DNA from: Ustilaginoidea virens
Lineage: Eukaryota; Ascomycota; Sordariomycetes; Hypocreales; Clavicipitaceae
DNA: 64,000 bases
Assembly: GCF_000687475.1 (NCBI RefSeq)
Contig: NC_057318.1
Location: 3,100,001-3,164,000, forward strand
Direction: 5' to 3'
Positions 1-62,759 of this stretch are shown one piece after another. Under the pieces are notes generated by a model. The model saw nothing but the letters and a program-made list of their open reading frames with translations, searched no databases and was not told the DNA's origin. Position 1 is the stretch's first letter. Every line of letters starts with the position of its first letter. The translations under genes and the position numbers were made by a program.

Positions 1-79
1 ACAATTGACACCTATATCCCTTTAGCACTGCGCGCACTTAAGCTTGCCCCTTAGTATAATACAGGCGTAGCCTGAATCC
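1..79 (-). mobile_element. tRNA-related SINE-like element, partial copy b
   Basis: This is the 5' part (read on the minus strand) of the short repeat also seen at 229-434 and 13218-13426. It has the same order of blocks: a hairpin motif at the right end, then a stretch rich in GCGC and AAGCTTAAG, then AATTGT at the window edge. The rest, including the pol III box A region, would lie left of position 1. It differs from the other copies mostly by C/T and G/A changes. Confidence 0.6.
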
Positions 80-180
80 TTAATATAGCTTCCCTCTCCG
101 CAGCCGGCCGTATAATACTATGCACCCCCTAGAGGCTAGTCCCATCCTCTATAAGCCTAGATGAAGAGCCTGCTGCACGC

Positions 181-241
181 GCCACATACGGGATTCGAAC
201 CTGTGACCTTAGGTAACTTGGTATAAATGTAACGATGTGGC
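181..241 (-). pseudogene. tRNA-like remnant (tRNA pseudogene)
   Basis: On the minus strand the 61-nt segment starts GCCACAT and ends ATGTGGC, a perfect 7-bp acceptor-type stem. Before the 3' arm lies GGTTCGAATCC, a perfect match to the pol III B box and T loop. The T stem pairs except for one A/C mismatch that a G-to-A RIP change would explain. The D arm and a convincing anticodon arm are missing and the length is below the usual 72 nt or more, so I do not assign an amino acid. It overlaps the 3' end of the adjacent SINE-like copy and may be part of that element's ancestry. Confidence 0.5.
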
Positions 242-434
242 CTAATTAGGCCCTAAACGGGTGTTTGCGCGTATCGCCAGGTAAAAACCTACTCTTCTGC
301 CTGACCGTTAGACCAGACAAAAGAGTACGTATTATACTAAGTTACCATACTTGGTACAATTGATACCTATATCCCTTTGGCACTGCGCGCACTTAAGCTT
401 ACCCCTTAGTATGATACGGGCGTAGCCCGAATCC
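229..434 (-). mobile_element. tRNA-related SINE-like element, copy a
   Basis: This is a roughly 206-bp repeat on the minus strand. It begins with a GGATTCGGGC hairpin motif (CGGGC-loop-GCCCG at 417-429). Mid-element is TGGTCTAACGG (plus 305-315), which fits the pol III box A consensus TRGYNNANNGG, set in a tRNA-D-arm-like context. The 3' part reads into the tRNA-like remnant at 181-241, whose B box lies about 114 nt downstream of box A, wider than in an ordinary tRNA gene. The copy at 13218-13426 shows that the unit moves: it sits in a gypsy element with a short target duplication. No poly-A tail is seen. SINE is my best reading. Confidence 0.6.
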
Positions 435-634
435 TTGACAACCTCCTTATAACATATAATAAATCCCTTTTGAATTCAAAGGGATACTACCGATTAAAGA
501 TAGTATATAGGTTTTCCTCCTAACACTTAGGCTTCCTATATAGATTAGATATAGAGGTATTAATACTAGGCTAAATAGGGACCCATCCCCCCATAGATAG
601 CTTAGCTAGAGTAATACATATATATATATATAAT
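435..634 (+). mobile_element. 5'-truncated LINE tail T1
   Basis: This matches the last ~200 bp of the LINE at 36833-43669, including the stretch around the tail motif CTTAGCTAGA and a terminal (TA)n microsatellite at about 617-634. Only 3' UTR sequence is present, as expected of a dead-on-arrival LINE copy. It directly abuts a second tail of the same family (635 onward). No target duplication could be assigned. Confidence 0.7.
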
Positions 635-779
635 ACCGCTGCCTACCCGATACTAATATTACCGTTACTACCCCTACCTAATAATACTGCCTATACTAGA
701 TCTAATGCATACCCACCCTAGAGCCAGACTAATAACTACTAATATAAGCTACCGCGCCTATCGAGGCGCTCCTATTATC
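635..779 (+). mobile_element. 5'-truncated LINE tail T2, left half
   Basis: This is 3' UTR of the same LINE family, colinear with about 43285-43430 of the LINE in G6 (shared blocks include CCCACCCTAGAG and CGCCTATCGAGGC). It is broken at 779 by the gypsy element G1 and resumes at 14733. The last five bases, TTATC (775-779), are the left copy of the G1 target duplication. Confidence 0.75.
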
Positions 780-1021
780 TGTAAAGGACTGGCCCTAGGG
801 CTACTGCAAATAGGCGTCGAATGAATATATTAAATAGACTAAGGAGGAAAGAGAGAAGACCCGAATAGGGACCTCTGAGTAGTCTATTTATACTTATATA
901 TAGTATAGGCCGAGTCTTTAGCAAGCCCTTATAACCCTATGCCGATACTCCTTAGGCTAGTCGCGGGCGTAGCCCGAGTCCTAGCCATATTATAGCGCAG
1001 GCGTAGCCCGAGCCTATAATA
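780..1021 (-). repeat. G1 3' LTR
   Basis: This 242-bp LTR on the minus strand pairs with 14486-14727. It starts TGTAAAGG and ends TATAATA on the plus strand, which is TG...CA after RIP changes. It contains two copies of a GGGC-loop-GCCC hairpin near its transcript 5' end. The polypurine tract follows at 1022-1040, which fixes it as the 3' LTR. Confidence 0.9.
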
Positions 1022-1040
1022 TACCCCCTTCCTCCGCCTC
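1022..1040 (-). other. G1 polypurine tract
   Basis: On the minus strand this reads as an unbroken run of A and G with few exceptions, ending in AAGGGGGTA directly before the 3' LTR. Such tracts prime plus-strand DNA synthesis in LTR retrotransposons. Equivalent tracts stand before the 3' LTRs of G2, G4 and G6. Confidence 0.75.
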
Positions 1041-1285
1041 GGAGTCGGAAAATCGTCTTCTATTATCAATTAGTCCTCCGCTAGGGACTAATTGCATCGC
1101 TAATTACTATGCCATAATATCCTCAAATCTATATATAGGCTAATTAGCGGGTATAAGAAGGATTCATCTATAAGTATAGCGGATATAGCTATACAATTGA
1201 TAAGAATCGTATAGTCATTAATTAGGAATAGTATAGTAGAGGCGTATAGAAGTTTATAGTCGCACTACTAGCTAGAGGGTAACTA

Positions 1286-1834
1286 ATGCAGCTAGGAATA
1301 TTATAAAAAAAAATTTCGCTAGCTATCGGCTAGGAATCCCCCTATAGTCTTTATTATTTCTTATTAGGGGCTTCTTTTCCTCTTCCTTTCTTCCTATTAA
1401 GGCTATTAACTAGCATTAAAGGTCCCCTATTATTATAAGTTTTATCTCATATTAAGCCCGTATTGCTTACTAATCGGTTGAAGCATTATTTTTATCCCGA
1501 TTTTATTAGTATTTTTACTAAAATCTATCTCTATTATAGCCGGCTGCTAACTCCTTTTGTAGTAAGACTCGGTCTATCCTATTATAAAGCCTATTAGTAG
1601 GTCTTAAAATCCCTACCTATATCGCGAGCGTTTTATGCTGACCCTATTTAGAACCTAAATATATCCTTATCTACTACTAGTAATACCCCTACCGGGGGAG
1701 GAATAAGTCTTACTTATCTCTAGAAGCCATATTATACTGCAGGTAATTATCTTCTAATGGGGAACTCCTTAAATAAGAAGTATTAATATATAAAAGACAA
1801 AAAGTTTCTATACAATAGATATACTAAATATATA
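1286..1834 (+). pseudogene. G1 antisense ORF (aORF), N-terminal part
   Basis: A reading frame opposite to G1 gag-pol opens at ATG 1286 and stays in frame, apart from TAG/TAA codons explainable as former Gln or Trp, to the LINE insertion at 1835. It resumes at 8236. The part before about 1630 is rich in Leu, Tyr and Phe. It then contains a block around ADPI-NLNISLSTT (from 1634) that is repeated in G2. I do not recognise the family. The start codon is a guess, because a poly-A run at about 1305 differs in length from G2. The frame is probably the first third of a protein of about 500 residues. Confidence 0.6.
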
Positions 1835-2599
1835 ATCTTTTTTTTCGTGATTTCGCCCGCACCTAGGTAGCGGCACGGAACCGCCTTTAAAATTAATTCT
1901 GATATTTCTAATCGCTTTTTCTTATCCGTTTACCCCCCTTACCTATAGCGTATTGCATCTAGAGAGTAGGCGCGGCAGGCACAAATAAAGTAATAGATAT
2001 CGATAGAGGGAATAAGGGCAATATAGCATATAGCCGCTACAACCCTAATACTATAATCGCGAATAGTATATAGTATAACCAAACCGAAACCGAACCTGCC
2101 TAGGGGCGGAAGCAATTAATAGCTGATATTATCGTAGATTTCATAAAAGAGCTATAGGACTATATTCCCTTAATAGTACTAGGAAGAGTGCGAGAGGCTA
2201 TAAACTTTATAGTAGAGACTACCCGGCGAAAAGCCGACCTAAGCAATATTTATATCCCTATTAGAACCTTTATACAAATAATCGAGACCGCAGTTAATAA
2301 GGCTATACAGAATCTTCTAAAAACTGCTATAGCCCCTATTATATAGGTATCTATCGCGGTATAAGGATTTGCAGCCGCTATATTACCCTAATGCAGCCTA
2401 GCTCCCCTTATAATGCCCCCCTATATCTATCGCGAAATCCTTATTAAAGGAAATACTATTAGCGAAATCCTCTAGAACTATACCCTAATCGAAATCGTTA
2501 ATATAATTAATAGGGCTACCGCCAAAGGAGTAGTAGTTATAGTCTATAGGCTCTATAGCGGCGATATAATTATTACCTTTAAAGAAGAAAAAGTAAAGT

Positions 2600-3420
2600 A
2601 TACTATAGATATCATCTAGGTATGCCCTACTTTTAGCTAAAAGGCAGAACCTAACTAATACTTATTTAGTATTATTATTAAAAGCTTCCCGACCTATTAT
2701 ACTATAAATACTGCGATAAAAGATATCTAGTCGAATCTTATTAAAGCTAATAAAGAGGGCTTTACTAGGGTCTCCCTTTACTGCCTTAGGGGGACCGCAA
2801 TATAAATACCTCTAATTATAAAGGTAGACTTTATTAACCTTATAAATAAACTCTATAAAGCCGGCATTATATACTAAGTAGAGATATTTAAAGCCGAACC
2901 CTATAACGATACTATATACCCTCGCTAGTATTATAATTGCTTTAAATTCGGCTATATTACTGCGTATTGCGTAACGGCAGCCTACTATAGCTAATACGAC
3001 TCTAAATGCTATCTAGATAGCGATTAAAGCTGCCTAGCTATTATATAGAATTAATGCAAATCCTACCTTAACTATTATAGATCCTACCCAATATAGTCCT
3101 ACCTCTATAAGGTAGCGAATAAATAATAAGGAAAAAGCTAGAAATTCCTATAATAATAGACTAAGGCTTTTTGCCTTATATATAGCATTAAATGCTAATA
3201 CTATTCTAATCGCAGATTAGGGCTGCTGCTATATAGCTAGTAGATCTCCCCTATATAAGCCCTCCCCCTAGAAATAAGGCCGCTTAGTTAGAAGTATTAA
3301 TAGGACCTCCCGTATTAGAGCCGATAATAGTATTACTATTTTCCTCCGAGCCGCCCCTATATAAGACCTTAGTATAACCGCGCCTACCTTAGATGCCTAA
3401 CCTATAGCCACCTCTAATAT
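2600..3420 (+). pseudogene. LINE 1 ORF1 (gag-like, zinc knuckle), C-terminal region
   Basis: This is a degraded nucleic-acid-binding protein of the LINE. The clearest sign is the zinc knuckle at 2929-2970, where two Cys and the His codons have become Tyr-type codons. Upstream sequence (from about 2000) is coding-like but full of TAG/TAA. In Tad-like LINEs this protein coats the RNA during target-primed reverse transcription. The boundaries are approximate. Confidence 0.6.
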
Positions 3421-3429
3421 ACTGCCGCT

Positions 3430-6400
3430 ACTAACCCCCTTATGACTATCTATATAATAATAGTCCTCTATTAGAATATATAGAAGAAAATTACCCTTAT
3501 AAGACTAGCACTTTATTATTAGTATAAGCCTAATATTATAGCGATCTAAAAACCTACTGCGCCTAGATAGGCCCCCCTAAATCCTAGCCCTAGAAGATAT
3601 ATATTAATAGCCTATAGCAGGAGAATAGTAATATATATCTATAAGCGGTATAGGCCTGGCATATAGTTTAGCAATAAAGGAACCGATTAGTATAAGATTT
3701 CCCTACTATATACTAATGTCTACTCTATCTACTCCTTAGGCTATAAGCTAAACTAGATAACCCCTTTTATTGTATTTACTAAGCTCCTACCCTACCCCTA
3801 TAGTGCCTTTATTAGGGATTTTAATATATATTACCCTCTTTAGGATAGCTTAGACTAAACCTCGCCTAGCATTAATAATCTCTTTAAATTTATAATATAG
3901 TAGTAGCTTAAGCTAATTACCCTTTATAGTAAAATAATAAAGAGGGCTCTTAAAAAGAGAAGTAGTATTATCAATTATATATAAGTTATATTAGATATTA
4001 AAATCGAATATTTTAGAAATACTAACCTTATTAGGTCCGATTATATCCCTTAGCTTATATATATTAATATTGGTAATTATTATATAAAAGCCCCCCCTTT
4101 AAAGAATAGCTAGAAGTCCTTTAATTAATACCTTACTTAAGCTGAAGCAAAAAATAGGCTTACTATTTATTATGCTAATACCCCGCTTTACTCCCCCGCT
4201 AAAATAGATATATATGCTAAATAGCTTACTAGTTAACTCTAGAGTATTACTAATATTATAATACTAAAAAGGGCACCTAAAGCTCCTAAGGCGGAGCTTT
4301 AGTAGAATTCCCGTATTAAGATAGCCTAAATAGTAGTAAAAAAGGCCTACCGAAAATAACTAGTATATTATATCTTAGAGAACTTTAGCGCTACTTAAGA
4401 AATAGGAATAACCTAATCTTATATTATCTAGGAGGAATAGCGCTAATTATAGCAAAAAGCCTTTAATAAAGTAACTGCCTAAAATGCCAACCTATAGTCT
4501 TTAGAGAAATAGGCTCGCCTATATAATAGCCTCCCGCCTAAATTAAGAAAGATCCCCCTGCTAAAACGAAGTAGTTTAGGCTTAAAGGCAATAATATATA
4601 GAGACAAGGTATAAGTACTCGCCTAATAGTTCTTCCCTACCTCTTAGGCTTTTTATAATAATATCCCTAACCTAATATTCCTTTAGTTTACTACTACTAT
4701 ATTCCCCCCTATAGACTCCTTTATCTACAAAAAGGTATATACCATATTATGCAATATAGTAGGCTAGAAAGCATTAAGCCCTAATAGGCTCCTAATAAGA
4801 TTCTTTAAAGTATATAGCTCTCTACTCGTTTAAACCCTTATATACCTCCTTAATAAAATATACTATATTAGATATTACCCGGCCTAATTCTAAGAGGCTA
4901 AAGTAGTAGTACTATAGAAGCCTAAGAAAAGGCCTAAGGAATACTTAAAGGCAAAAGGATAGAGACTAATATCGCTATTTAACCTAATAGAGAAGGTTAT
5001 AAAAGCTATAATCGCGAGGCGGTTTATTATTACCCTTAAGGAGGGTAACCTCCTCTTAGACCTTTAAAGAAATAATAAAGTAAACCGGTTAACTAATATA
5101 GTACTAAGCACGCTAATTAAGATTATATATATAATCTAGCACTATAGTAGGATCGCCTCGCTCCTCTAATTAGATATATTAGCCGTATTTAATATAATTA
5201 ATTATACCCGCCTTATCTACCTACTTTTTAATAAAGGGCTCCCGCTATAGCTTATAGTATAGGTATATAGTTTTGCCAACTTGCAAATAGTATAAATCTA
5301 CTTTAAGGGATAGCTTATAGATAAACTATTAATTACCACTAGGGTACTATAAGGGTCCCCTTTCTTTTTTATCCTCTTCTTTATTTATATTATGCTACTC
5401 TATAAAAAGCTATAAAAAGTAGCCTTAACTATTATACTTAGCTTTACTAACGATATAAATATTATAGCCTATAGGAGAAATATAGGGGAAAGAAGGGCGC
5501 TATTTGAGAAAGTATAGCTTATCTATAATAGCTAGTCTAAATAAGCCGGACTTAATTTTAACCCTAGTAAAAGTAAGCTTATCTATTTTACCTATATATA
5601 TAAGGCAGATAAGACCGAGGTATAGCTTAAGACTATAATAATTTAGCTTAAATAATATATTAGATTCTTAGGAGTCGAAATCTACTATAAGCTAAAATAA
5701 AAGGAATACTATATTAAGATTATAAAAAAACTCAAGCGGTAGCAATTTATACTTATAATAATAGCAGCCTCAACTTAGGGCTATTAATACCGGGAAATAT
5801 ACTTAATCTATATATAGGTTATCTAGACTTCTATAGCCTTTAGCGCGGGGGTATAGTATACCCCTACTACCCCTAGAGGGGTAGCAAAAGGCATTATAAA
5901 ATCCCTAGCTATAAAATAATCAGCCTGCCTTCGTATAATTACTAAAGCCTTTAAGGTTATACCGCTAGATACCTTTAAGACTAAGGCAGTTATACCCCTA
6001 ATTAACCTTTATCTTAATTATATTTACTAGCGGTTCCTAGAAAGAATAGATAAAATAAGTATAACCGATAGGATTAACTATATATTAGCAGTAGTAATAG
6101 CGATATTCTAATATTAATAAAAGAAAGGCTACTAAAGACCCCTAGCCTATATACTATTCCCCGATCCTAACCTTAATTAGCTTCCGGCCGAAGAGCAATT
6201 AGTAAAAGACTAATATAACTTATAGTAAAGTAATTAGGTAATAGTAAAGGCGAGATACCCTTAGCATAAAACCTTAGCGGCTGAAAAGGCATTAGACTTC
6301 TAATCTATAGCAAAAATAATTTAACTATATAAAGGCCTATAAAAGTATAAATTAGTAATATTTACCTAACTCTCTATAGAAAAAATCGGCTTTAACTCTT

Positions 6401-6760
6401 TCCTCTACCTCTAATAAGTACCCTTAGTATTATTATCTCTCTACTACTATAGGGAAGGCCTAAAAGACCTTTATTATATTATCCTCTTCTGCCTAAAATG
6501 CTATAAATAAAAGCGTATACTCTTTAGATCTAGCCCTAGCCTTAGCCTACTTTACGACCAATATAGTATATCTATCGCCCTTAATAAACTATGCCTTATA
6601 TAAATAATCGCTTGCTAGATACTTAATATCGACCGATTTAATTAATTTTAATTTATCTAATCCTTTTAATATAGTATAGCTAGAGGAGCTACTAAATACC
6701 CTTATATAGCCCCTATATAATATTTATAGTAATCCTATAGTAGAAATAAGGAGCCTTAAG
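3430..6760 (+). pseudogene. LINE 1 ORF2 (endonuclease and reverse transcriptase)
   Basis: The frame order fits a Tad/R1-type ORF2. It starts with an N-terminal AP-like endonuclease, with a DFN-YYPL motif at about 3810-3840 corresponding to GDFN-HHPLW. The central reverse transcriptase (about 4930-5480) includes a GSPFF-LFFIYI block and FTNDINIIAY, the degraded FxDD catalytic motif. A C-terminal region lies around 6360-6500, before a non-coding tail. Many Trp and Gln codons have become stops, so it cannot be translated. The boundaries are estimates. Confidence 0.75.
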
Positions 6761-8221
6761 AATAAGTAAATCTTTTAGGCTCTATAGGCTAGAACTAATC
6801 TATAGTTATTATTTTAATATTAGGGGTATCCTCTTTCCTTTCTCCCTTTTTACTCCCCCTACTACACCCCCCCTTTATTTTTATTATTTTTAGTCTACTC
6901 CCCCTCTAAAGCCCTCTCCCCCCCCTTTTAGGCTAAAAAAACCCATAATAATATAATAATATCCTCTTAAGTATAGGCTTATTATTCTAAAGCGAAGACT
7001 TTCCTTTTTTCGAAGTTTAGTATCTCTTAAGTTGCCTTAAGAGCGCTAAGGCCCCCTATTGCTGCCGCTACTACTATTACTACTGCCTGATTATACCCCT
7101 AAGAGGCAGATGCTTATTTAGCCCTCTACTAAAGGGCCTTATAGTTATCTACCTAAAAGTAAAGATAATCAGCTAGTAATCTATACTGCATATAAATCGA
7201 AAATGTATTTTTATCCCCCTGATAATAATCTCCTATACATTTAGGAGTTTTTATATTAGGACTTAGTTCCTAAGGGTCCTTTCTAGGGGTATATATATTT
7301 TGCCCGCTAAAGTATAGGGATAGTAGGCTATATTAGTCCCTACTTATATTAGCCTTACTAGAGAGCAGGTATAACCTAGTCTATACCTTATTAGCTGCGG
7401 CATCTATACTTAGGATCCTCTAAGCATATTAGATATAGCCTATAAAGCTATATACGCAATTCGCCGGGCTATTATATAAAGGTTAGCTGCGGTTCCGCCG
7501 CATATAAGATCTATATTTACCCTTTTATTTAGTATTACTAACCGCTTAGGCATCTTTATTCTTACTATTATTATTCTTATTATTGCTATTATTACTACTG
7601 CTATTACTGCTGCTACTGCTGCCGTTCTGCTAATAGGGTTAGCACCGGCCCTATACCACAATAGAGGGGTTATTATATATTTTGAAATTAGCGCTATAGA
7701 GGAAAAAAAGAAAAGAAAAAAAGGCACTAAATTGGGGGGCATTGCTAATTTATATACTAATATAGTACTTAAGGCCGCCCGCTTCTACTTTTAGAATTAG
7801 CTTGCTTTCTCTTCCAACTAAAAAATTAATATATACCGAGAAGCGCCTAAGCCACTATAGACGCGCGCCCGGCGAGAATATACCTATCGCAAGCGCGCTA
7901 CTAGCCCTACCCCCCCGGCTTTACCCTCCCCTTACTTCTCATCCGATAAGACTACCGACCTAGACCTAATATTCTAGGACTTCTTACTCGCACTCTTCCT
8001 ATATAATACCGCTAGATATAGTCCTAAGCGGTTGCGCATCTTACTCTCTTATGCACTAGATACCTACTGCCCCCGCTACGGGGCGATAAAAAGTAGTAAT
8101 TAAGATTGCAGGAAGGGTTTTCCTTCCGGCTATTAGGTTTTTCCTTTCCGAATTATCTTTATAGAAGTACTAGATAGGTTATTTAGCTCTAAATAGCCTC
8201 TAGCGTAATTTAATAATAATA
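6760..8221 (+). other. LINE 1 3' untranslated region
   Basis: About 1.4 kb without a credible gene. It holds pyrimidine-rich and CTA/TTA-rich low-complexity stretches. Its end resembles the LINE 2 tail: a GGTTTTCCT-CCGGC block, then CTAGCGTAAT, then TAA repeats. The central low-complexity stretch (7540-7640) produces a spurious open frame on the minus strand (7440-7742). Confidence 0.6.
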
Positions 8222-8235
8222 ATACTAAATATATA

Positions 8236-9186
8236 TAAGCAACTAAAGAGCTATCTATTTATAAGCATTATAGAAGAGCAAAGGGGTATAAAAGCTATGC
8301 CGATTCCTATATATCCTATATATAGCTTGATTAATATCTCGCAGGGAACCCTTTACTACGATATATCTTATGCAATTAGATTAAGGCAATAAAGGATGGG
8401 AGGGCTATTATAAAGCCCGCCTATCTTAAGATAGATATATTCAAAGCATATACCGCTATCCTAACCCCTGAGTTTTAGGCTTTAAATAATTAATAGTATT
8501 ATGCTTTTGCTGCTAAGCAGGTAGCCCCCCGCGCCCCACGTTTAGCATTTAGGCCAAAAGATACCTCTAGTATAGTTTCTACTATATCTATGGCATTAAT
8601 GCCCTCCTAGCGCTAGGCTAGATCCGTTATAGATCTCGCCCCTATACTAAATATTATAAAGGAAATGCAAATAGAAGCCTAGGAATATTATACTAGGATA
8701 GAATAGTACTAGGTTAAAGCTTAATATCCCCGACTGCCCCTACCCCTATCTCGGCCTGCCTTCCCTATATATTACGTAAAGTGGGAACTATTATATAACT
8801 AAAGCGGCTAATATTACGCAGAGGCTCTACCGCCGCTAGCATAAGGTTATTTAATGTAACCCCTATAATAGCAGGCAGACCCTACTTTATAGCCCCCTAT
8901 ATTTACGCCATCTTTATTATAGCTACTGCTATAAATACTGTATTATCCGGCCCTATTTCGTTAAAAGGTCTTATTATCTCTTAATACGCCCCTACTATAT
9001 TTGCTTTATAATAGCCCGCAGACTCTATTATATTATAAACGTATAGGGAACTATTCCCGTCTAATATATAGCCTATATATATACCCTACCCCGTAAGGAC
9101 CCCTACTGCTACTAACCTATATGCCGCTATAAGAATAAGAGGAGGCTTAAGGAGATAAAGAGTAGCTCTAGGAAAGGGTATATTAA
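8236..9186 (+). pseudogene. G1 antisense ORF (aORF), C-terminal part
   Basis: Continues the frame of 1286-1834 after the LINE. From 8239 to 9186 it has exactly the same length (948 bp) as its counterpart in G2 (20005-20952), so no indels have accumulated. Interruptions are TAG/TAA plus a few stops near the end. Recognisable blocks also found in G5 include ELPIYK-YRRAKG, IIKPAYLKIDI, TAILTPEF-ALNN, DLAPILNIIKE and EYYTRIE-Y. The C-terminal third is rich in Pro, Leu, Gln and Tyr. No known domain was recognised. It lies between the chromodomain and the 3' LTR, convergent to pol. Confidence 0.75.
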
Positions 9187-12100
9187 AGGTAAGCCTATAT
9201 CGGCCCCGGTTTAGTTTATTATATTTTTTTTTTAAAGTGTTTTTATTATTTTATATTTTTACTTATAGTAGTACGCATTTAGCGTTATTTATTAGTCTAA
9301 TAGACCTTATTTTGGGACCTAGTTAGGCCCATTATAAGTCTTAATATCCCCCTATTTAGCCTTAAATATTTCTCGTATGGTAATATCCTTAAAGTTTTTT
9401 AGGGGTTCCTATATCGTTAAATTATACCCTTTCCACTTTATAAGTATATTGCGTTTTTATCTTTAGCCCTATATATTCTTCGCTATAAATATCTCCTTAA
9501 CCTTATACTCCTTATATAGGTTTGTAGAGTCTTAAGGGAGGATAAATAGGGGCCTAAATTATATATCGGTTATTATTTAATTAGGTAATAGATTAGAAGC
9601 AGCTTATTTAATTAGGTTAATATAGAAAACCAGATAAATACCCTATAGGATATTAAGCTAGATATTAAGCGGTAATAAGATAGTAATAATAGTATATTTA
9701 GTAGAGACCTAATCGAGCTTCTTATATAGGCGGTTCGTTTTAATATTCTAAAGGTTTAATTATACCTAATTACTAACCTAAAAGCGCTTAGCCGGGCGTT
9801 ATAAACGGTTAGTAGTATCTTACTATTGTTATTATATAAAGGCGATAATAGCCTAGGCTAATTCTTATCCCTTTTTAAGGTTATTAAGAAAAAGAGCTAT
9901 GTACCCTTTTAGGGTAGTTAAGCTTAAGGTTACCTCTAGAGGTAAAGCGATAATTGGAATATTAAACCTATTAAGCAGCTAGTTTGGGCTAAACCCAATA
10001 ATAGATAATATCTAGTTATTTAACGTAAGGTAATATACCGCGAAATAGTATACCTAATCGTACTAATTAAAGAAAACTATAATATAAAGGACTGCCTATA
10101 CTTCTTAATTCATTTGCTTTATACCGCTATTAGTTTAAGGGTAGTATACTATTAATAGAAGTTATTTAGTCCTAACTGATTTATATAGTGTAGACTAAAA
10201 TTAGCCTATTTAATCTGAACCTTAATTACTAATAATCTCCCTAGGGAAGCTATAAAAGCGCTACTAATACTATTAGAAGCGTTCTATATAGTCTTCTGCT
10301 TTTATTAAATATATAGCCTTAAGCTGGATATATTTCGATAAGTAGTCTATAATTACTATAAGGAATCGCGGGTTAAAGGCATTTTAGGCAGGAAGGTCGG
10401 TTATAAAGTCGATTAATATCTATAATTAGAAGTAATCTGCAATTAATAGTAATTGCAATAGGCCCTAGTATAATTAGCGGCTCTTATATACCCCGCAGTA
10501 TTAGCAATTTTAAATATATCTTGCTACCTTAAACGATATATTATCGAAATAATAATCCTATCGCAATAGTTAGAAAGTAGTATTTTTCCCTAGGTAGCCC
10601 GCAATAGGCGAGTTATAATAGCATTAGATTACTATAGTAGTTAAAGGCTTAAACGATAGGAGCTATACCTATATCCGGTAAAGGAGCATACTATATGCAT
10701 TTAGGGTATAATTAGTAATTTATTCTTATATTACCGCCTCTATTAGAAATTATTATTCCTTATTCGCAATTACTATCTATTTGGCCTAATATATACTATC
10801 TTTAGATATCGCTTAATCTTAAATAGCTTAAAGGTAAGAATTAGTAAAGATATATAGGCTATAAAATAGGGTAGTCTTTAAGGCTAAAATCGGTATTATC
10901 TTACCCCTTTTTTTTTTTTTAAATCAAATGCTAAAATAAATAGCGGTTTTAGGATCTAGCCGATTTATAGCTCTACCCTATCTACCTTTTATTTCTATCG
11001 AGAAAGTATATTAGGTTGTTAGGCTTATAACTTTAGCCTATACTAAAAATAGAAGTTAAAAAATACTAAAGTCTTAGCCTATTAGGCTTATCGCTTAGAT
11101 ATTTCTTATAGTTAGGCAAAGTACTTTAGGTTTTTATAATCGGTAAAGATAATAAAGGGGGAGGCTATTAAGTAGAGTTCTACTAACTATGCCTTAAGGC
11201 AAAAGATAATAGTAAAAAATTCTTTATTATATATAATATAATTCTATTCTATATCCGATAAGCGAGTGGAATAATATATAATAAGATAGAGTATACTATC
11301 CTCCCTAACTTATAATAGATAGCTACTAAAGGCTATATTGGAACTATCTATCTTAAAAACTATCTCTTTACTAGGGTCCTATTAGGTAAGAACTAAAGAT
11401 AATATAAAATACTATTTAAGCGCTTAAAATACTGCCTCTTCTTTATCTAACTATTAGAATAAGACCCCTTTCTTTATTAACTTAACTAAAAGATCGATAA
11501 GGCGGGAAAAGTCTAAGATAAAATCGCGGTACAAGTTAGTAAAACTAAGGAAATTATAAATGCCTTTTAATTTTATAGGCGCTTCCTAGTTCTAAATAGC
11601 CTTAATCTTTTTAGGGTCTAAATAAATTTCCTTTCCAGCCATTATAATATATCCTAAGTACTGGACCTCCTTTATTATAAAATCGCATTTATTAAGATCT
11701 AAATTTAAGCTGGCCTTTTATAATTATCGAAGGGCTTCCTTAATGCGCCTTATATAGTCCGCTTTTAGTCCCCTAGTATAGATTAAAATATTATTAAGGT
11801 AGACAGTTATAAAGTCTCCTAGTATATTCCCTAAGGCCCTATTAATATATCTTTAAAAGGTCGTAAGGGCCTTAATTAGGCTAAATAGCATAATAAGCCA
11901 TTTAAATAGTCTAAATCGTATGCGGAATATAGTTAAGTATTTATTGCCTTCTATAATATGTATCTTATAAAATGCTACATATATATTAACTTTAGTAAAC
12001 TATTTTGCCTAGAATAAAGATTATAAGGTCTTCTTAATTAAAAAGAGGGGGTATTAGTTTTAGACTATAACCTTATTAAGGGCCTAATAATCGATATAAA

Positions 12101-13207
12101 AACGCTACCTACTATTCCCCTTTTTAGCTAATAGGATTAATACTGCTACCGATAAAGAGCTTATATAAATCTATCTTTTATCTATTAGGTTAATTACTTA
12201 TCTCTAAACCTTAAGTAATTAATCTTATAGCATATTATATAATAGGCCCTAAAGTAAGTCTAGCTGGCTCTTATCTATAGTCTTTTTAAGTTAGATATAG
12301 TAGTCTAATTAACCCTGGTATAGAGGGAGACTAGAAGCCTTCTCTTTATTAAAGAGGTTAATAAATTCCTATAATTCTATTAAGAGCACCTATAGCTCTT
12401 ACGATTATAAGATAAAATCCTAATAAGGTAGTAGTATAATATAGAGGATATATATTATCTCCTATAAGCTTATCGCAATAAAGGAAGTCGACTAGTCCCT
12501 AAAATATTTTGCCTGCTTTAGTATACTATAGAAGATTAAGCTAAGGATATTTACTATAGTTAGACCCTATTGTTTTCTTATCGATTCCTTAATAATAAAA
12601 TTACCTACTAATCCGATCTTTAATTAGTACTATTTTGCCTATAGTATAATATTATAGTGCTCTATTTAAGGCATCCTCAGGATAATATCGTAGGTAAGAC
12701 CTAAGATAATATAAAGTATAATTATAAACGGCTATCTATCGATATTGATCGCTTTATAAATAATATAGATAATAGAGGAATATATTACTTTATATTCTCC
12801 TAAATAGCTCTAAATATTTACTATTATTCTAATTTCCCTATATTATAGTAGGCGGATAGGTTAGAGGCCTAACTATTATACTATTTTTTCGCTTATAGCG
12901 CTATAATGGTTATATCCTAAGTCAATTAAGGTATTAATAAAGGTATAAGATTTATATAAGATTAGTACTAAAAAGGGGTATTTATTTATTTATTCTATAA
13001 TCTCTTTTAATTCCTTTTATAATTAAGCTAGGGTTTATATATATATCTTAAGCCCTTTAATAAGACTAAATTTAAAGGCTATTCTTTTTCCTAATTTTTA
13101 TTACTACTTTTAACCTTTACGATTTATAAATTAAGTAAGGCCACTTTAGCTACATTAGGTCGGATTACCGGTAGTAAGTAATATATAAATATCTAATACT
13201 TAGAAGA
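9187..13207 (-). pseudogene. G1 pol polyprotein (protease, RT, RNase H, integrase, chromodomain)
   Basis: Reading the minus strand from right to left: a protease region near 12940; RT from about 12180 with LLAKKGNS, ALNKV, a YLNNILIYT version of YLDDILIYT and YLGYII; RNase H with YYSTRLSD near 11290; integrase with IDFIIDL-IVIIDYLSKYIQLKAIY and YYPKTNSGI-RINQE near 10400-10150; and a C-terminal chromodomain with NILIKWKGYN near 9440. This order (integrase after RT, chromodomain last) is that of Ty3/gypsy chromoviruses. The chromodomain would steer integration to chosen chromatin. All frames carry RIP-type stops. Confidence 0.88.
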
Positions 13208-13217
13208 GCTATGTTAA

Positions 13218-13426
13218 GGATTCGGGCTACACCCGTATCATACTAAGAGGCAAGCTTAAGTGCGCGCGCAGTGCCAAAGGGATATAGGTGTCAATTGTAC
13301 CAAGTATGGTAACTTGGTATAATACGTACTCTTTTGTCTGGCCTAATGGTCAGACAGAAGGTTAGGCCAATACCCAGACGATATACGCAGACACCCGCTT
13401 AGGGCCCAACTGGGTCACGTCTTTAC
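13218..13426 (+). mobile_element. tRNA-related SINE-like element, copy c
   Basis: This 209-bp insertion in the gag region of G1 is flanked by 11-bp near-identical repeats, AGCTATGTTAA (13207-13217) and AGCTATACTAA (13427-13437). They differ by G/A and T/C, as RIP would produce. The unoccupied site is visible in G3 near 22885. It begins GGATTCGGGC, carries box A TGGCCTAATGG at 13339-13349 and ends CTTTAC. It shares its whole length with copy a. It proves the repeat is a mobile unit using short target duplications, in line with LINE-assisted insertion. Confidence 0.75.
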
Positions 13427-14485: not shown

Positions 14486-14727
14486 TATAAAAGACTAGCC
14501 CTATGGCTATTGCGAATAGGCATCGAATAAATATATTAAATAGACTAAGGAGGAAAGAGAGAGGACCTAAATAGGGGCCTCTAAGTAGTCTATTTATGCC
14601 TGTATATAGTATGGGCCGAGTCCTTAGCGAGCCCTTATGACCTTATGCCGATACTCTTTAGGCTAGTCGCGGGCGTAGCCCGAGTCCTAGCCATATTGTG
14701 GCGCGGGCGTAGCCCGAGCCTGTGATA
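14486..14727 (-). repeat. G1 5' LTR
   Basis: This 242-bp LTR is close to identical in length and layout to 780-1021. It is followed on the right by the target duplication TTATC (14728-14732). It retains a few more TG/CA dinucleotides at its right end than the 3' LTR. Confidence 0.9.
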
Positions 14728-14732
14728 TTATC

Positions 14733-18719: not shown

Positions 18720-20952
18720 TTATAAAAAGATTTTTACTAGCTATCGGCTAAAAATCCTCTTATAGTCTTTATTATTTCCCATTAGGGGCTCCTTTTCCTC
18801 TTCCTTTTTTCCTATTAAGGCTATTAATTAGTATTAAAGGTCCCCTATTGTCGTAAGTTTTATTCCGCATTAAGCCTATATTATTTGCTAATTGGTTAAA
18901 ATATTATTTTCGTCCCGATTGCATTAGTATCTTTACCGAAATCTATCTCTATTGCAGCTAGCTGCTAACTCCTTTCGTAGTAATGTTGCAATTCTCAAGG
19001 TCACTATAAAGCAAAGCCTTACTAGCTAGCTAGATGGCACGAGACTGTCTGCGACCTGTGAACTAATCTTAGTATAATACTAGATTTTTTACCAAGTCCT
19101 AAGACTATACAAGTGCTATAAAGCAAGGCAAGTGTAAAGGCAAGGCAAATATAAGATAACCAGAAAACGCAGGGAAGGTAAGAAGTTAAGAGGCATATAG
19201 TGCATTAATAGACTCAATTGTGCTGCCCTTCTACTATCTAGAAAGAAGGGGAAAAGCTATCCTATATATACACGAAGAGGGGTGGGCCCAGGCATCCAAG
19301 GTAGCCAGTAAGAAAGCTCACCGTAATACTCACTTGCCACGTATACAATACGTCAGTAGCCCCACTATATCGGGCCTTTTCAACCACCCTAACCACTGCA
19401 CTAGTAATTAGTTACCGCACTAGTGATTAGTTACCGCACTAATGACTAGCCACCACGCTAGTGACTACCCACCACACTAGTGGACTAGCCACCACACTAG
19501 TAGGCCCACCACGCTAATTTAGCAATGCCACACCTTTTTAACAAGGCCTACCTTAAGGCCTACCTTACTTGATATACAGTAAATAATCCACTGAAAATCC
19601 TTAAGGTAAAAGGCAAAGGCATAAGGTAAAACTACCATGAGTCCAAGAGGCGGTATAATGGTCAGAAGGTTAGTAGGCCAGTAGGGCATTAGGCTAGCAG
19701 CCTAGTAGGCTACTATAGGATTTTAACAAGTAAGACCTAGTCTATCCTATTGTGAAGCCTATTAGTAGGTTTTAAATCCCTATTTATATTATAAGCATCT
19801 TATGCTGACCCTATTTGGAACCTAAATATATCTTTATCTACTACTGGTGATATCCCTATTAGGGGAGGAGTAGGTCTTACTTATCCCTAGAAACTATACC
19901 GCGCTATAGGTGATTATCTTCTAAAGGGGGACTCTTTAAATAAGGAGTATTAATATATAAAAGATGAAAAGTTCCTATACGATAAATATACTAAATATAT
20001 ATAAGCGACCGGAGAGCTCCCAATTTATAAGCGTTATAAAAGAGCAAAGGGGTGTAAAAATTATACCGATTCCTATACATCTTATATATAGCTTAATTAA
20101 TATCTCGCGGGGAACCTTATGCTATAATATATCTTATATAATAAGATTAAAGCCATAAAGAAGGGGAGGGCTATTATAGAGCCCGCCTGTCTTAAGATAG
20201 ATATATAGAAAGCGTATACTGCTATCCTAACCCCTAAGTTTCGGGCTTTAAATAATTAATAGTATCGTACTTTTGCTACCGAATAGGTAGCCCCTTATGC
20301 CCTATATTTAGCATTTAGGCTAAAAGATGCCTCTGGTATAGTTTCTACTATATCTATAGCATTAAAACCCTCCTGGCATTAAGCTAAATCCATTATAGAT
20401 CTCGCCCTTATGCTAAATATTATAAGGGAAACGCAAGTAGAAGCCTAGGAATATTATATTAGGATAAAATAGTATTAGGTTAAAGCTTAATATCCCTAAC
20501 TGCCTTTACCCCTATCTCGGCCCGCCCTCCCTATATATTATATAGAAGGGGAACTATCGTATAACTAAAGCGGCTAATATTATATAGAGGCTCTACTGCT
20601 ACTAGTATAAAGTTATCTAATATAACCCCTGCAATAGTAGGCAGACCCCGCTTTATAGCCCTTTGCGCCCTCGCTATCTTTATTATAGCCGCTACTATAA
20701 ATACTATATCATCCGGCCCTATCTTATTAAGGAGTCTTATTATCTCTTAGTATGCCTTTACTATATTCGCCTTATAATAGCCTGCAGACTCTATGATATC
20801 GTAAATATATAAGGAACTATCCCCATCTCATATATAGCCTATATATATGCCCTACCCTATAAGGACCCTTATTACTACCGGCCTGTATACTATTATAAGA
20901 ATAAGAGGAGGCTTAAGGAGATAAAGAGTAGCCCTAAGAGGGGGCATATTAA
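18720..20952 (+). pseudogene. G2 antisense ORF (aORF), interrupted by a solo LTR
   Basis: This is the counterpart of the G1 aORF on the plus strand. After the solo LTR (18984-19728) the frame reads YADPIWNLNISLSTTGD from 19801, then GDYLLKGDS, FLYDKYTKYI, GELPIYKRYKRAKG, KIKAIKKGRAIIEP, TAILTPKFRALNN, LNIIRETQVEA-EYYIRIK, and a Pro/Leu/Tyr-rich end at 20952. Interruptions are RIP-type stops plus one TGA. A 1-nt shorter run near 19775 shifts the frame relative to G1. A 64-codon open frame (19964-20158) is a different frame of the same DNA. No known domain was recognised. Confidence 0.72.
18984..19728 (+). repeat. Solo LTR, family S, copy 1
   Basis: This 745-bp sequence starts TGTTGCAATTCTC and ends GATTTTAACA, with a perfect 5-bp duplication AGTAA (18979-18983 and 19729-19733). 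The empty site is present in G1 near 1567. It contains a TATA-like CTATATATACAC and a degenerate ~20-bp tandem repeat at 19391-19520 (CCACC-CTAGT-ACTAG units). TG...CA ends with a 5-bp duplication mean an LTR. No internal region of this family occurs in the window. It is lightly RIPped. Confidence 0.88.
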
Positions 20953-21583
20953 AGGTAAGTCTATATTGGCCCTAGTTTAGTTTATTATTTTTTTTAAAGT
21001 ATTTTTATTATTTTATATTTTGCTTATAGTAGTAGGCGTTCGGCATTTTTTATTAGTCTAATAAACCTTATTTTAGGATCTAGTTAGGCCTATTATAAGT
21101 CTTAATATCCCCCTATTTAGCCTTAAATATTTCTCTTATAATAGTATCCTTAAAGTTTTTTAGGGTTTTTATATTAGTAAATTGTACTCTTTCTACTTTA
21201 TAAGTATATTATATTTCTATCCTTAGCCTTATGCATTCTTCGCTATAAGTATCTCTTTAACTTTATACTCTTTATATAGGTTCGTAGAGTCTTAGGGGAA
21301 GATAAATAGGGGCCTAAATTATATATCGGTTATTACCTAATTAGGTAATAAATTAGAAGCAGCTTATTCAATTAGGTTAATATAGAAAACTAAATAAATA
21401 CTTTATAAGATATTAAGCTAGATATTAAGTAGTAATAGAATAGTAATAATAGTATATTTAGTAAAGACCTAATCGAGCTTCTTATTTAAGCAATTCGTTT
21501 TAATATTCTAGAGGTTTAATTATACCTAATTACTAACCTAGAAGCATTCAGCCGGGCATTATAAACAGTTAATAGTATTTTAC
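20953..21583 (-). pseudogene. G2 pol C-terminus (integrase end and chromodomain)
   Basis: Colinear with G1 9187-9827. The chromodomain is at about 21220-21060 on the minus strand. The frame is broken by RIP stops and cut by the G3 LTR at 21584. Confidence 0.8.
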
Positions 21584-43684: not shown

Positions 43685-44200
43685 ACTATTTATACCGCCC
43701 GATAGAATGTTTTTAAGTTAGGGATTAGGTATAGCTTACCTTACATAATATTAAGATAAACTGGCCTTATAAGAAGCTCGATTAGGTCTCGGTAAAGTAT
43801 ATAATTATAGCTATACTATCTCTATTTAATATTCGACTTAATATCCTATAGGATATTTACTTAGTTTTCTATATTAATTTAGTCGAATAAGCGGCCTCCG
43901 ATCTACTTTTAAGTTAAAAGCTAACTAATATATAATTTAGTCTTTTATTCGTACTACCCTAAGACTCTAATCGGCTATATAAGGAATATAAAGTAGAAGA
44001 AATTTTAGCTATAAGAAATACTTAAAATTAGGGGTAGAACTATAATATACTTATTAAATAGAAAGGATACGATTTACCTATATAGGAACCTTTAGAGAAC
44101 TTCTTAGAGATAGCAGCATAAGAGGCATTTAAGGCTAAATAAAGGGATATTTAAATGTATAATAGATTTATACGGCTTTGGGATTAGATTTTAGACCTAT
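43685..44200 (+). pseudogene. G6 pol C-terminus with chromodomain
   Basis: Colinear with G5 62185-62690. It ends in a chromodomain with LLK-KGYDLPI-EPLENF (about 44035-44110), followed by EAFKAK. It would direct integration to modified histone tails. RIP replaced the aromatic-cage Trp codons with TAG. Confidence 0.85.
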
Positions 44201-45191
44201 AACCTTAATATCGTCTAATAATATAAAAAAAAAAACTAATCCTTTTCTTTTCTAATAAAGTAATCTAATAAGTTTTAGCATTTATTTTTTATTTTTTAGT
44301 AATTCTAGCCCTATTCTTATATTCTTAATTCTTACTACTCCTACTACTTTTACCCTTATTAGCATTCCCCTGCCCTCTTATAGAATTCAGTAGGAGGATA
44401 TATAGGGGAAGGGGGGGACTATAAGATAATAGGGCAAAAAAGGTAGCAGTAGTATTAGTAGTATAGTTAGTGGATACTAACTCGGTATAATATAGCTTAA
44501 ATACCTATAATAGGGCGTAATAGGTCCGGGGGGATATACTTATAATATTAGGCCGGCAGTAATAGAACCGGCCTTAGCTAGCGGTATAGTTATTAGTATA
44601 GGGGCCTAGGGCGAGGCTATACTAGTATATAGGGAGGATGCTAATTAAGAGGAAGTAGGCAGGATATAAGGCGTGGGTATAGTAGGGGTGACCTAATGCG
44701 TGAAGTTGGTTATCACTTCCGCTATAATCTATATATCTTATTATTACTCTGCGAGTAATTATATAATAGGCGCTATAAAGTTGCCGCTAGCCTATCGGGA
44801 CCTAATAGTTAAGGCAGAGGGAATAATAATCGTTATAGGTATAGTAGGAATTAACCCGCCGATATTAATAGCTAGGGTATACGCAAAAAGAGCCGTTATA
44901 GTATACTCTTGCGCTATAGCCTATAGTTTATCCTATTGACGATATAGTATATTAAATTTAAGGCGAAGACAAGCCTTTCGGCCTAGGATATCTCCTATCT
45001 TCGGATAGGCGGCCTCTTTAATACTTTATTTCTTTTATACTATACAGACGATACGCTTTTTTACCCGCTATAGTTAGGGATTTATCGATATTATACGCTC
45101 GCACCAAATATACGTCTTATATTTCTAATGGTATTAAATATAAGCCTAGGAGCAACCCGATTGTATATTAATAATATATTCTCCGGTATCT
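44201..45191 (-). pseudogene. G6 distal region, candidate C-terminal part of the antisense ORF
   Basis: This lies between the chromodomain and the copia array. On the minus strand a frame with mostly RIP-type stops continues from 59589, with Tyr/Pro/Gln-rich composition like the C-terminus of the G1/G2/G5 aORF. Alignment to those is weak and I cannot fix its end. A plus-strand open frame at 44700-44939 is probably a shadow. Low confidence. Confidence 0.35.
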
Positions 45192-45196
45192 ATAGT

Positions 45197-45911
45197 TGTT
45201 GAAATCATCGCCTTTTTAGCTGTATTTTGGTACTAGTCTCGCCACCATACGACGTCTCTGCGTTGAGATATCGCGGTGGCTATACCAGGCGCTATAGTGG
45301 GGCATAGCGCCCCACAACGCCGATTACAGTAGGCCACAGCGCCGGTCACGGCACCGGCACAGCGCCCCACAGCCGGCCACAGCGGCCGGTCACAGTGGGC
45401 CACAGGGCCCACAACAGGCGGCGCATTTCTACGGGATTACCAAATGGGCAAAATAGCACCTTCGGCCTTCTACATATAGTCACCCGCTACACCGCGCCTT
45501 TACGGCACACCGGTATAGGGCTTCCGGCCCGTACGGCAGGCTATTATAGGGCATCCGGCACACCGCTATAAGCCACTGGGCTTGGTTGGGTAGGCATTGG
45601 GTAGGATATTGGGCACAGACTGGGCACGGTTAGGCAGACCGACTTTTCGTCGGGTTTTTTGCTATTTTTGCGGTTTTTCATTATTTTCAACCACTTTTTC
45701 AAGATGATAGAAATATGCCTAAAATTCCCTCTTTCTAGCTAGAATAATCACCAATAATTAGAATCAGATTTCCCTAATATCTTTACTCTGGTCAACCTCT
45801 CGTGCACTTTAAATCTTTAACCAGCTCTTTATTTTATTTTGCAATGCCTTGTACGCTACTATCGGTATCCAGTACATTTCCAATAGTATTCTAAATCACC
45901 ATTTTGCAACA
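45197..45911 (+). repeat. Copia array LTR 1
   Basis: A 715-bp LTR, TGTTGAAATC...TTTGCAACA. It is GC-rich in the centre with inverted GGCC/CCGG motifs and a two-unit ~32-bp repeat near 45505-45560. The tRNA-Met half primer site follows at 45912. Confidence 0.93.
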
Positions 45912-60753: not shown

Positions 60754-60997
60754 TATTACAGGCTTGGGCTATGCCCGCGCTATAATATGGCTAGGACTTG
60801 GGCTATACCTACATCTAGCCTAAGAAAGGCAATAGACGGAGTCACGGGATTATATTAGGACTCCAATATGTATTATAATTAGGATATAAATAGACTAAAT
60901 AAAAGGTTTTTATTTAGATCCTTTTCCCTCCTCTTTAGTCTATTTAATATATATTATTGACGCCTATTTGCAGCCGCCCTAGGGCCAGTCCTTCACA
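60754..60997 (+). repeat. G6 3' LTR
   Basis: A 244-bp LTR equal in length to the 5' LTR. It begins TATTACAGGC and ends CCTTCACA. AGTCTATTTAA lies at 60937-60947. G5 sequence resumes at once with ATAGGAATAAA, matching G3 at about 25348. Confidence 0.92.
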
Positions 60998-62759
60998 ATA
61001 GGAATAAAAGGCAGATAAGGTAGAGCTATAAATTAGTTAGATCCTAAAACCGTTATCTATTTTAGTACTTAATATAGATAGGATAGAAGGTATTAGGACC
61101 CTAATCTTAGATTTAGAGGTTACCCTACCTTACGGCCTATATATCTTCGCTAATATTTACCTTTAGGCCCTTTAGGACTAAACAATATCTAAAAATAGTA
61201 TATACTAAGCACGATAGATAGCAGTAGCAAATAGAAAGCAATAATTCCCTATAGCGATAGCGATATAGGAATAAATTGCAGATTATACCCTAAATGCATA
61301 TAGTATGCTATTCTACTGGGGGCGGGTATAGCTCCTATCGTTCGAGCCTTTAATTATAATAGTCATCTAATAATACTATAACTCGCCTATAGCGGGTTAC
61401 CTAGGGAAGAATACTACCTTCTAATTATTGCGATAGGATTATCATTTTAATAATATATCATCTAAGGTAGTAAGGTTTGTTTAGAACTATTAATACCGTA
61501 AGGCGTATAAAAGCCGCTAGCTATAATAGGGTCTGCTATAGCTTTTACTAATCTCGGACCGTTTCTAGTCGCAAATATTAGTAGATTTTATAATAGACCT
61601 CCCTGCTTATAACCTTTCCGATTTATGCTTCTTTATAGTAATTACTAACCGCCTATCGAAGTATATTTAGCTAAAGGCAATATACTCTATAATAGCCGAG
61701 GAGTATATAGAGCGATTCTAATAATACTAATAGTACTTCTATAGATTCTCTAATGAGATTATTAGTAATAGAGGCTTAGATTAAGTAGGATAATTTTAGA
61801 TAATACTTTATAAGGCAGTTGGGATTAAATAACTCCTCTCGACTATATATTACCCTTAAACTAATAGTGGTATAAAACGAATAAACTAAGAGGTCTAGGC
61901 TATCCTCTATATCATAGTCTCCTTTAACTAGTATAATTAGCCTAAGCACCTTACTATATACTAACTTGCCTTAAATAACTAGATATTATTAGTAATAAGG
62001 TTTAGCCCGAACCGGCTCTTTAATGGGTTCAATATATTAACTATTATATTAGCCCTAGAGGTAATATTAAGCTTAAAAATACTAAAAGGGTAGGCGGCTT
62101 TCTTTTTAGCTAACCTTTAGAAAAAAGGGGAGTTAGCTTAATCTACTATCGCTTTTGTATAATAACGATAATAAGATGCAATAAACTATTTATACCGCTT
62201 AGTAGAGCGTTTCTAGGTTAGAGACTGTATATAGTTTAGCCTAAGGAATATTAAGATAAACTATTTTTATAAAAAGCTTAATTAAGTCTCTATTAAATAT
62301 ATTATTATTGCTATCCTATCCCTACCTATTATCCAGCTTAATATCCCTAAAGGTATCTACTTAGTTTTTTATATTGACTTTATTAAATAGGCCGCTTTTA
62401 ATCTACTTCTAATATAGACCGTTACTAATATTAGGCCAAGGCCTTTATTTATTCTTCTATAAGATTTTAATTAGCTATACGAAGAATATAAGGTTAAGGC
62501 AATACTAGTAGCGAAAAACGCTTAGGGTTAAAGCAGGAAATATAATATACTAATTAAATAGAAAGGGTACGATTTACCTATATAGAAACCCTTAGAAAAC
62601 TTTAAAGATTTAGCGGTATAAGAGGCATTTAAAGCTAAATAGGGTGATATTTATATATATAATAGGCCCTTTAGGCTATTAAAATAAAGTCTACCGGACC
62701 TATAAATAACGCCTAAATGCCTACTTATAAAAAAAACCCTTAAAATATTAAAAAAAAAA
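60998..62759 (+). pseudogene. G5 pol resumed: integrase and chromodomain
   Basis: Continues G5 after the G6 insertion. Integrase, with an HHCC-type stretch and a catalytic region (NRLSKYI-LKAIYSII near 61650), runs to about 62020. A region colinear with G6 43685-44160 follows and ends in a chromodomain (KGYDLPI-KPLENFKDLAV near 62565-62620). The uninterrupted empty sites for family S copy 3 and LINE 2 lie here. Confidence 0.87.

What the first reader, a model, noticed from the sequence alone, without database searches (positions are those of the whole stretch)
8236..9186. A long antisense ORF conserved across gypsy subfamilies, 3' of the chromodomain
Between the pol chromodomain and the 3' LTR, G1, G2 and G5 carry a frame of roughly 400-500 codons on the strand opposite to gag-pol. 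G1 and G2 have exactly 948 bp in the C-terminal part. G5 is diverged at the DNA level yet keeps the same protein blocks in order: GDYLL-G, FLY-RY, LPIY-R-RAKG/RSRG, IKA-K-G-IIKP, TIL-P-F-A-NN, APIL, EYY-I, RIGNY. Stops are only those RIP makes, apart from a few. The pattern implies selection on an antisense-coded protein before inactivation. Antisense extra ORFs are known in some plant gypsy lineages; I do not know of one described for fungal chromoviruses.
Basis: partly seen in the sequence, partly recalled or inferred. Interest (0 to 1): 0.85.

Follow-up and report, generated by a model that had tools for sequence, protein, structure and literature searches.

The report
Swappable antisense gene in fungal retrotransposons
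Several families of dead fungal jumping genes carry a real extra gene, written backwards near one end, and near-identical jumping genes were found with very different versions of it; such backward genes were already known in one fungal element, so the kind is not new, but the swapping is unexpected.

Summary
In G1, G2 and G5 a frame antisense to gag-pol, between pol and the 3' LTR, encodes a homologous protein; a remote fourth family (D) has it too. Transversions, which RIP does not make, show purifying selection (Kn/Ks 0.38-0.44 in four inter-family pairs; integrase control 0.16). In G1 the gene is split by a 6.4-kb LINE-like insertion, so 8236-9186 is only its C-terminal part. No relative was found in Pfam, NCBIfam, PDB, IMG/VR or a 5.8-billion-protein set that does hold fungal gypsy RTs. 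The kind is not new: an antisense gene, brtn, is reported in Boty of Botrytis. New here: the gene behaves as an exchangeable cassette. Two complete elements share LTR and gag-pol region (8 transversions in 5,269 bp) but differ by 387 transversions in the 1.8-kb aORF cassette; the edges fall at a poly(A) run after pol and at the polypurine tract. A further copy joins a B cassette to a C-type pol. Best reading: an accessory, probably regulatory protein, reshuffled by template switching. Coding and exchange are shown by sequence; mechanism and function are inferred.

The parts
8224..9234 (+). C-terminal part of the G1 antisense ORF (the finding), antisense to gag-pol
   Evidence: tblastn 8215-9231; profile 522 bits over 8182-9234
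1721..1834 (+). N-terminal piece of the same G1 antisense ORF, cut off by the insertion
   Evidence: tblastn 1724-1834, 62% aa; profile 44.6 bits
1835..8221 (+). LINE-like element inserted in the G1 antisense ORF: (TAA)n end, 14-bp duplication 1821-1834 / 8222-8235
   Evidence: RT-like reading by eye only, no profile run
9380..9510 (-). approximate end of G1 pol with chromodomain-like motif WKGY
   Evidence: by eye; homologous stretch of L074; no profile hit
9211..13221 (-). G1 pol region
   Evidence: 84% DNA match to L073 1773-5782; RT and RNase H by Pfam in the homologous stretch of L074
14488..14728 (-). G1 5' LTR
   Evidence: match to the LTRs of L073 and L074
780..1022 (-). G1 3' LTR, ends approximate
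   Evidence: match to the LTRs of L073 and L074 and to 14488-14728
19882..21000 (+). G2 antisense ORF (family A), not interrupted over the stretch read
   Evidence: profile 574 bits
62793..63998 (-). G5 antisense ORF (family C)
   Evidence: profile 428 bits over 62793-63887
60992..62754 (+). G5 pol, 3' part
   Evidence: 73% DNA to G1 pol; transversion Kn/Ks 0.16 in 61079-62670
44350..45190 (-). Family D: remote homologue of the antisense ORF, downstream of another gypsy pol (plus strand) ending near 44.16 kb; ends approximate
   Evidence: hhalign probability 95%, E 4e-8, 142 columns; other five frames E 0.15-0.72; profile 8.7 bits at 44810-45190

Best explanation
The stretch is an accessory gene of Ty3/gypsy elements, written antisense to gag-pol between pol and the 3' LTR. 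Shown by sequence: it was protein-coding and under purifying selection before RIP; homologous versions sit at the same place and strand in four element families (A, B, C, D); together with its upstream stretch it forms a cassette of about 1.8 kb that has been exchanged between element backbones. Inferred: exchange by template switching of reverse transcriptase between co-packaged RNAs, at a poly(A) run after pol and at the polypurine tract; transcription from a promoter inside the cassette, between the ORF start and the 3' LTR; and an accessory, probably nuclear regulatory protein (more basic than acidic residues, proline-rich last 40%, no strongly hydrophobic stretch) that tunes expression or transposition of the element or acts on a host factor, rather than a part that must fit this element's own Gag-Pol, because near-identical backbones carry very different versions.
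For: Coding: transversion-only Kn/Ks 0.38-0.44 between families, upper bootstrap limits 0.52-0.55, integrase control 0.16-0.17; over sampled pairs A-B 0.505, A-C 0.481, B-C 0.391, A-A 0.512, B-B 0.354. Frame: best of six in 6 of 6 comparisons, e.g. A-B 187 against 128 bits, B-C 334 against 266. Fourth family: hhalign E 4e-8 in the antisense frame only. Position: complete elements with LTRs of about 240 bp, TSD GTAAT in L074 (read by eye). Cassette: L074 (A) against L073 (B), 8 transversions in element positions 1-5269, 387 in 5270-7084, 1 in 7085-7342; edges at the poly(A) run and the polypurine tract. Averaged over 36 A copies the step against L073 is 15-27% on the aORF side, 3.8% in the bin that holds the edge, and 0-1.3% on the pol side. 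Of four further B-cassette copies, three have A/B-type pol (transversions 0.001-0.009 to L073, 0.072-0.080 to C) and one (L063/L081, about 1.0 kb of pol) is nearest to C (0.021; 0.080 to L073, 0.087 to L074), while its aORF is B (0.007-0.008 to L062 and L061, 0.093-0.100 to C). Composition.
Against: In one search the aORF frame is not the lowest within B (0.354; wobble-sharing sense frame 0.325) nor within C (1.64 on about four changes per pair; two sense-strand frames 0.60 and 0.66); that sense frame equals it in one of four pairs. Some majority-stop columns show no precursor codon in any copy (A 5 of 35, B 11 of 39, C 10 of 33), so truncation in part of the copies is not excluded. Start codon, introns, promoter and transcript are not established. 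Selection is weaker than on integrase (0.4 against 0.16). No known domain, and no usable structure model (pLDDT 31), so the function rests on analogy. Only two complete elements were compared and only four further B copies typed for pol; the L063 pol match ends after about 1.0 kb. Family D rests on a profile match of 142 columns; its own variable R/Y columns by codon position (8, 3, 12) fit coding but are few.
Confidence: 0.8

Rival explanations
1. Non-coding antisense region: the open frame is a by-product of base composition, RIP and codon shadowing, and any antisense transcript acts as RNA (for example feeding RNA silencing).
For: The aORF frame has no fewer stops per copy than other frames; the review PMC7264820 raises a dsRNA role for antisense transcripts of such elements (passage).
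Against: Kn/Ks well below 1 from transversions only; best of six frames in 6 of 6 comparisons; profile match of family D in this frame alone.
Confidence: 0.04
2. A sense-strand gene (env-like or a pol extension) in the same DNA is the real coding frame and the antisense frame is its shadow.
For: The wobble-sharing sense frame has transversion Kn/Ks 0.37-0.61 in four pairs, once as low as the aORF, and is lower than the aORF within B and within C.
Against: Lower alignment scores in 6 of 6 comparisons; in family A 13 codon columns of that frame are stops in all copies, against 4 for the aORF, and 19 majority-stop columns have no precursor, against 5; pol casts the same kind of shadow.
Confidence: 0.03
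3. Coding gene, but the cassette difference reflects very fast evolution of the antisense gene in one lineage, not exchange.
For: The aORF is less constrained than integrase.
Against: The step is abrupt at both edges, 8 and 1 against 387 transversions; A copies differ by only 0.4-1.5% in the same stretch; L063 joins a B aORF to a C-type pol.
Confidence: 0.03
4. The antisense protein takes a structural or envelope-like part in particle formation or transfer between cells rather than regulating.
For: Sharing of third ORFs, env-like and others, between different retroelements is reported in bdelloid rotifers (PMC5408684, passages).
Against: Antisense orientation; highest 19-residue hydropathy 1.28 among six copies read with RIP damage and X at stops.
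Confidence: 0.1

Closest known systems
brtn, antisense gene of Boty-like gypsy elements in Botrytis cinerea (Zhao et al. 2011, Virology 417:248; paper not held, title seen in reference lists; described in passages of PMC7264820)
   Same: Fungal gypsy element; additional gene antisense to gag-pol between pol and 3' LTR.
   Different: Protein homology could not be tested (no BRTN sequence available here); cassette exchange is not mentioned in the passages I saw.
Plant aORF-3R genes: Grande gene23, RIRE2, PvRetro13, Retand with TRP28 (PMC7264820: section 7 and passages; PMC11963269: passages)
   Same: Position, orientation, presence in many copies, undetermined function, suggested nuclear or regulatory role.
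   Different: No TRP28 (PF04195) or other Pfam hit above cut-off here; fungal; exchange between backbones seen here.
ORF3 of bdelloid rotifer LTR elements (PMC5408684, passages)
   Same: Third-ORF types shared between different retroelement backbones.
   Different: There DEDDy, GDSL, env and other types; no relation of sequence tested; their orientation was not in the passages I saw.
HBZ and other antisense genes of HTLV (mentioned in PMC11963269 passages)
   Same: Antisense accessory gene with regulatory action.
   Different: No sequence relation tested; used only as an analogy.

Membership tests
Ty3/gypsy element with chromodomain | RT followed by RNase H | tested here: met
   PF00078, PF17919, PF17917 above cut-off in L074
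Ty3/gypsy element with chromodomain | Integrase after RNase H | tested here: inconclusive
   Integrase_H2C2 E 0.089 and rve E 0.19, both below cut-off; position fits
Ty3/gypsy element with chromodomain | Chromodomain at the end of pol | tested here: inconclusive
   WKGY / KGYDLP motif seen by eye; no profile hit
Ty3/gypsy element with chromodomain | Gag before pol | tested here: inconclusive
   The piece after the 5' LTR of L074 has no Pfam hit; position fits
Ty3/gypsy element with chromodomain | LTRs with TG..CA and target-site duplication | tested here: met
   L073 LTRs 94%, L074 LTRs 91%; TSD GTAAT in L074, AGTAT/AATAT with one mismatch in L073 (read by eye)
aORF-3R (antisense additional ORF between pol and 3' LTR) | Antisense, between pol and 3' LTR, inside the LTRs | tested here: met
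   Stretch read at A element positions 5285-6409, B 5336-6532; 3' LTR from about 7101
aORF-3R (antisense additional ORF between pol and 3' LTR) | Conserved as a protein | tested here: met
BRTN of Boty | Sequence homology to BRTN | not testable with these tools
   Paper not held; no BRTN sequence available
TRP28 / Retand antisense protein | PF04195 domain | tested here: not met
   Pfam scan of 8 members at E up to 1: only a DAG1 chance match, E 0.46, in 1 of 8
Env-like protein | Sense orientation | tested here: not met
   Antisense to pol
Env-like protein | Transmembrane stretch | tested here: not met
   Highest 19-residue Kyte-Doolittle mean 1.28 among six RIP-damaged copies, X counted as Gln

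The most novel reading that the evidence does not exclude
The antisense gene with its upstream stretch is a self-contained, interchangeable module, bounded by a poly(A) run and the polypurine tract and traded between gypsy lineages by template switching, as expected if it is the diversifying part of an arms race (escape from a host restriction or from copy-number control) rather than a part co-adapted with Gag-Pol. The protein family itself is undescribed.
Probability: 0.35. Interest if true: 0.8.

Novelty: new variant of a known kind. Interest (0 to 1): 0.6.

Why it matters
Antisense additional genes of LTR retrotransposons recur in plants and are reported in one fungal element, and their function is an open question. 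Here two nearly identical backbones carry very different antisense cassettes, which separates the gene's history from that of gag-pol and gives a natural comparison for what the gene does. It also shows that transversion-only substitution tests recover selection on proteins from heavily RIPped relics without rebuilding them.

Tried and rejected
The first protein query (7777-9210) wrongly included about 150 codons of the inserted LINE-like element, noticed when L074 showed the junction; the protein-set search was repeated without it. In one search, 7 of 89 scored places end at query residue 199 or earlier, that is wholly or mainly in the LINE part, leaving 82.

Stop-codon counting as proof of coding: it favours the aORF in families B and C but does not separate the frames in A, so I do not rest on it. 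TGA rarity: rejected, expected from RIP.

Structure prediction from three window copies: pLDDT 31, unusable, no fold search run. PDB profile search: one match, E 0.94. IMG/VR: 50 pattern matches, none a relative. NCBIfam: none. Protein set: none at E 0.001 among 4,139 candidates, none at 0.01 among 7,990 scored; the control with the RT piece gave 429 among 7,996 scored, so fungal gypsy proteins are in that set, though antisense ORFs may often go unannotated.

Prior art was sought. I saw no cassette exchange of antisense ORFs in those listings and passages; that is not proof of absence, since most subscription papers are not held.

Full report
Setting. The window is C3:3100001-3164000 of a 37.16-Mb, 8-contig genome, AT-rich and RIPped.

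What is there. G1 gag-pol reads on the minus strand; the reported frame is on the plus strand. L074 (A) and L073 (B) are complete copies of about 7.34 kb with LTRs of about 240 bp. In them the antisense stretch read lies at element positions 5285-6409 (A) and 5336-6532 (B), after pol and before the 3' LTR at about 7101. RT and RNase H are found by Pfam; integrase only below cut-off, the chromodomain only by eye, gag not at all. In G1 a LINE-like insertion (1835-8221, 14-bp duplication) splits the antisense ORF.

Families. Searches of the same genome gave 82 places related to G1 (89 scored, 7 of them wholly or mainly LINE; 433 candidates), 105 matches with the G5 query and 104 with a B query; these lists overlap and are lower bounds. 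I aligned 50 A copies, 8 B and 6 C. A copies are 41-47% identical to G5. A profile of these 64 copies found a weak fourth match in the window at 44810-45190 minus (8.7 bits), placed downstream of another gypsy pol. Seven copies of that family (the window's and six of the other 39 places listed) gave a profile that matches the aORF profile with probability 95%, E 4e-8, over 142 columns at 27% identity; its other five frames gave E 0.15-0.72.

Selection. RIP makes C-to-T and G-to-A transitions (established knowledge), so I counted transversions alone. In frame-neutral DNA alignments Kn/Ks in the aORF frame was 0.377 (B_L061-C_L072), 0.387 (B_L061-G5), 0.442 (A_L020-B_L061) and 0.410 (G2-G5), upper bootstrap limits 0.52-0.55; the other two frames on the aORF strand gave 1.04-2.16. 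Integrase of the same elements gave 0.166 and 0.156, and its wobble-sharing opposite frame 0.34-0.35. The corresponding shadow of the aORF gave 0.366, 0.450, 0.614 and 0.567. Over sampled pairs (60 of 400 A-B, 60 of 300 A-C, all 48 B-C, 60 of 1,225 A-A, all 28 B-B, all 15 C-C) the aORF frame is the lowest of six in A-B, A-C, B-C and A-A. It is not within B (0.354; shadow 0.325) nor within C (1.64 on about four changes per pair; two sense frames 0.60 and 0.66). Two of the 50 A rows (L009, L019) carry LINE sequence in their first codons; they were kept. Six-frame comparison with stops as X puts the aORF frame first in 6 of 6 pairs, one of them within A.

Stops. The stop pattern favours the aORF in B and C but does not separate the frames in A. 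The shadow frame on the sense strand is disfavoured in family A, where 13 columns are stops in all copies against 4 for the aORF.

Exchange. L074 and L073 differ by 8 transversions in positions 1-5269, by 387 in 5270-7084 and by 1 in 7085-7342 (profile). The left edge falls in a poly(A) run after pol, the right edge at the polypurine tract. Averaged over 36 of 50 A copies (14 dropped because their match to G1 is truncated on the pol side or holds the LINE junction) transversions to L073 are 15-27% on the aORF side and 0-1.3% on the pol side, with 3.8% in the bin between. Of four further B-cassette copies, L062, L064 and L067 have A/B-type pol (transversions to L073 0.001, 0.009, 0.008; to C 0.072-0.080 over the main pieces), while L063 has pol nearest to C over about 1.0 kb (0.021 to C, 0.080 to L073, 0.087 to L074); the L063 aORF is B throughout (0.008 to L061; 0.093-0.100 to C). 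So B cassettes sit on two backbones and the A/B backbone carries two cassettes.

What it may do. Six raw copies have more basic than acidic residues, a proline-rich last 40% (P 0.13-0.23) and no strongly hydrophobic 19-residue stretch. No database relative was found. By analogy with the plant genes discussed in PMC7264820 (section 7, and passages) and PMC11963269 (passages), a nuclear regulatory accessory role is the most likely; that is inference. That near-identical gag-pol backbones carry such different versions suggests that it need not fit Gag or Pol closely.

Known work. [quoted passage not shown] 2011, which is not held. PMC8365987, PMC2864245 and PMC5408684 were seen in passages only. 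The finding is therefore a new variant of a known kind.

Noticed in passing
1835-8221: LINE-like element with (TAA)n end and 14-bp duplication inside the G1 antisense ORF; related stretch at 39399-41015 (64%).
   Followed up: partly
L019: L019 matches window 6672-10713 without a break (82%), so it holds the same LINE-aORF junction as G1: a shared insertion copied along, a duplication, or a preferred site.
   Followed up: no
44200-45190: Fourth gypsy family with a remote antisense homologue; 40 places scored of 82 candidates.
   Followed up: partly
45197-45496, 52033-52332, 58869-59168: Three copies 94-95% alike at an exact spacing of 6836 bases.
   Followed up: no
13222-13426: About 200 bases extra in G1 relative to L074, matching parts of window 1-440.
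   Followed up: no
L064, first 300 bases: By eye, LINE-end sequence abuts the B-type antisense ORF at another point than in G1.
   Followed up: no
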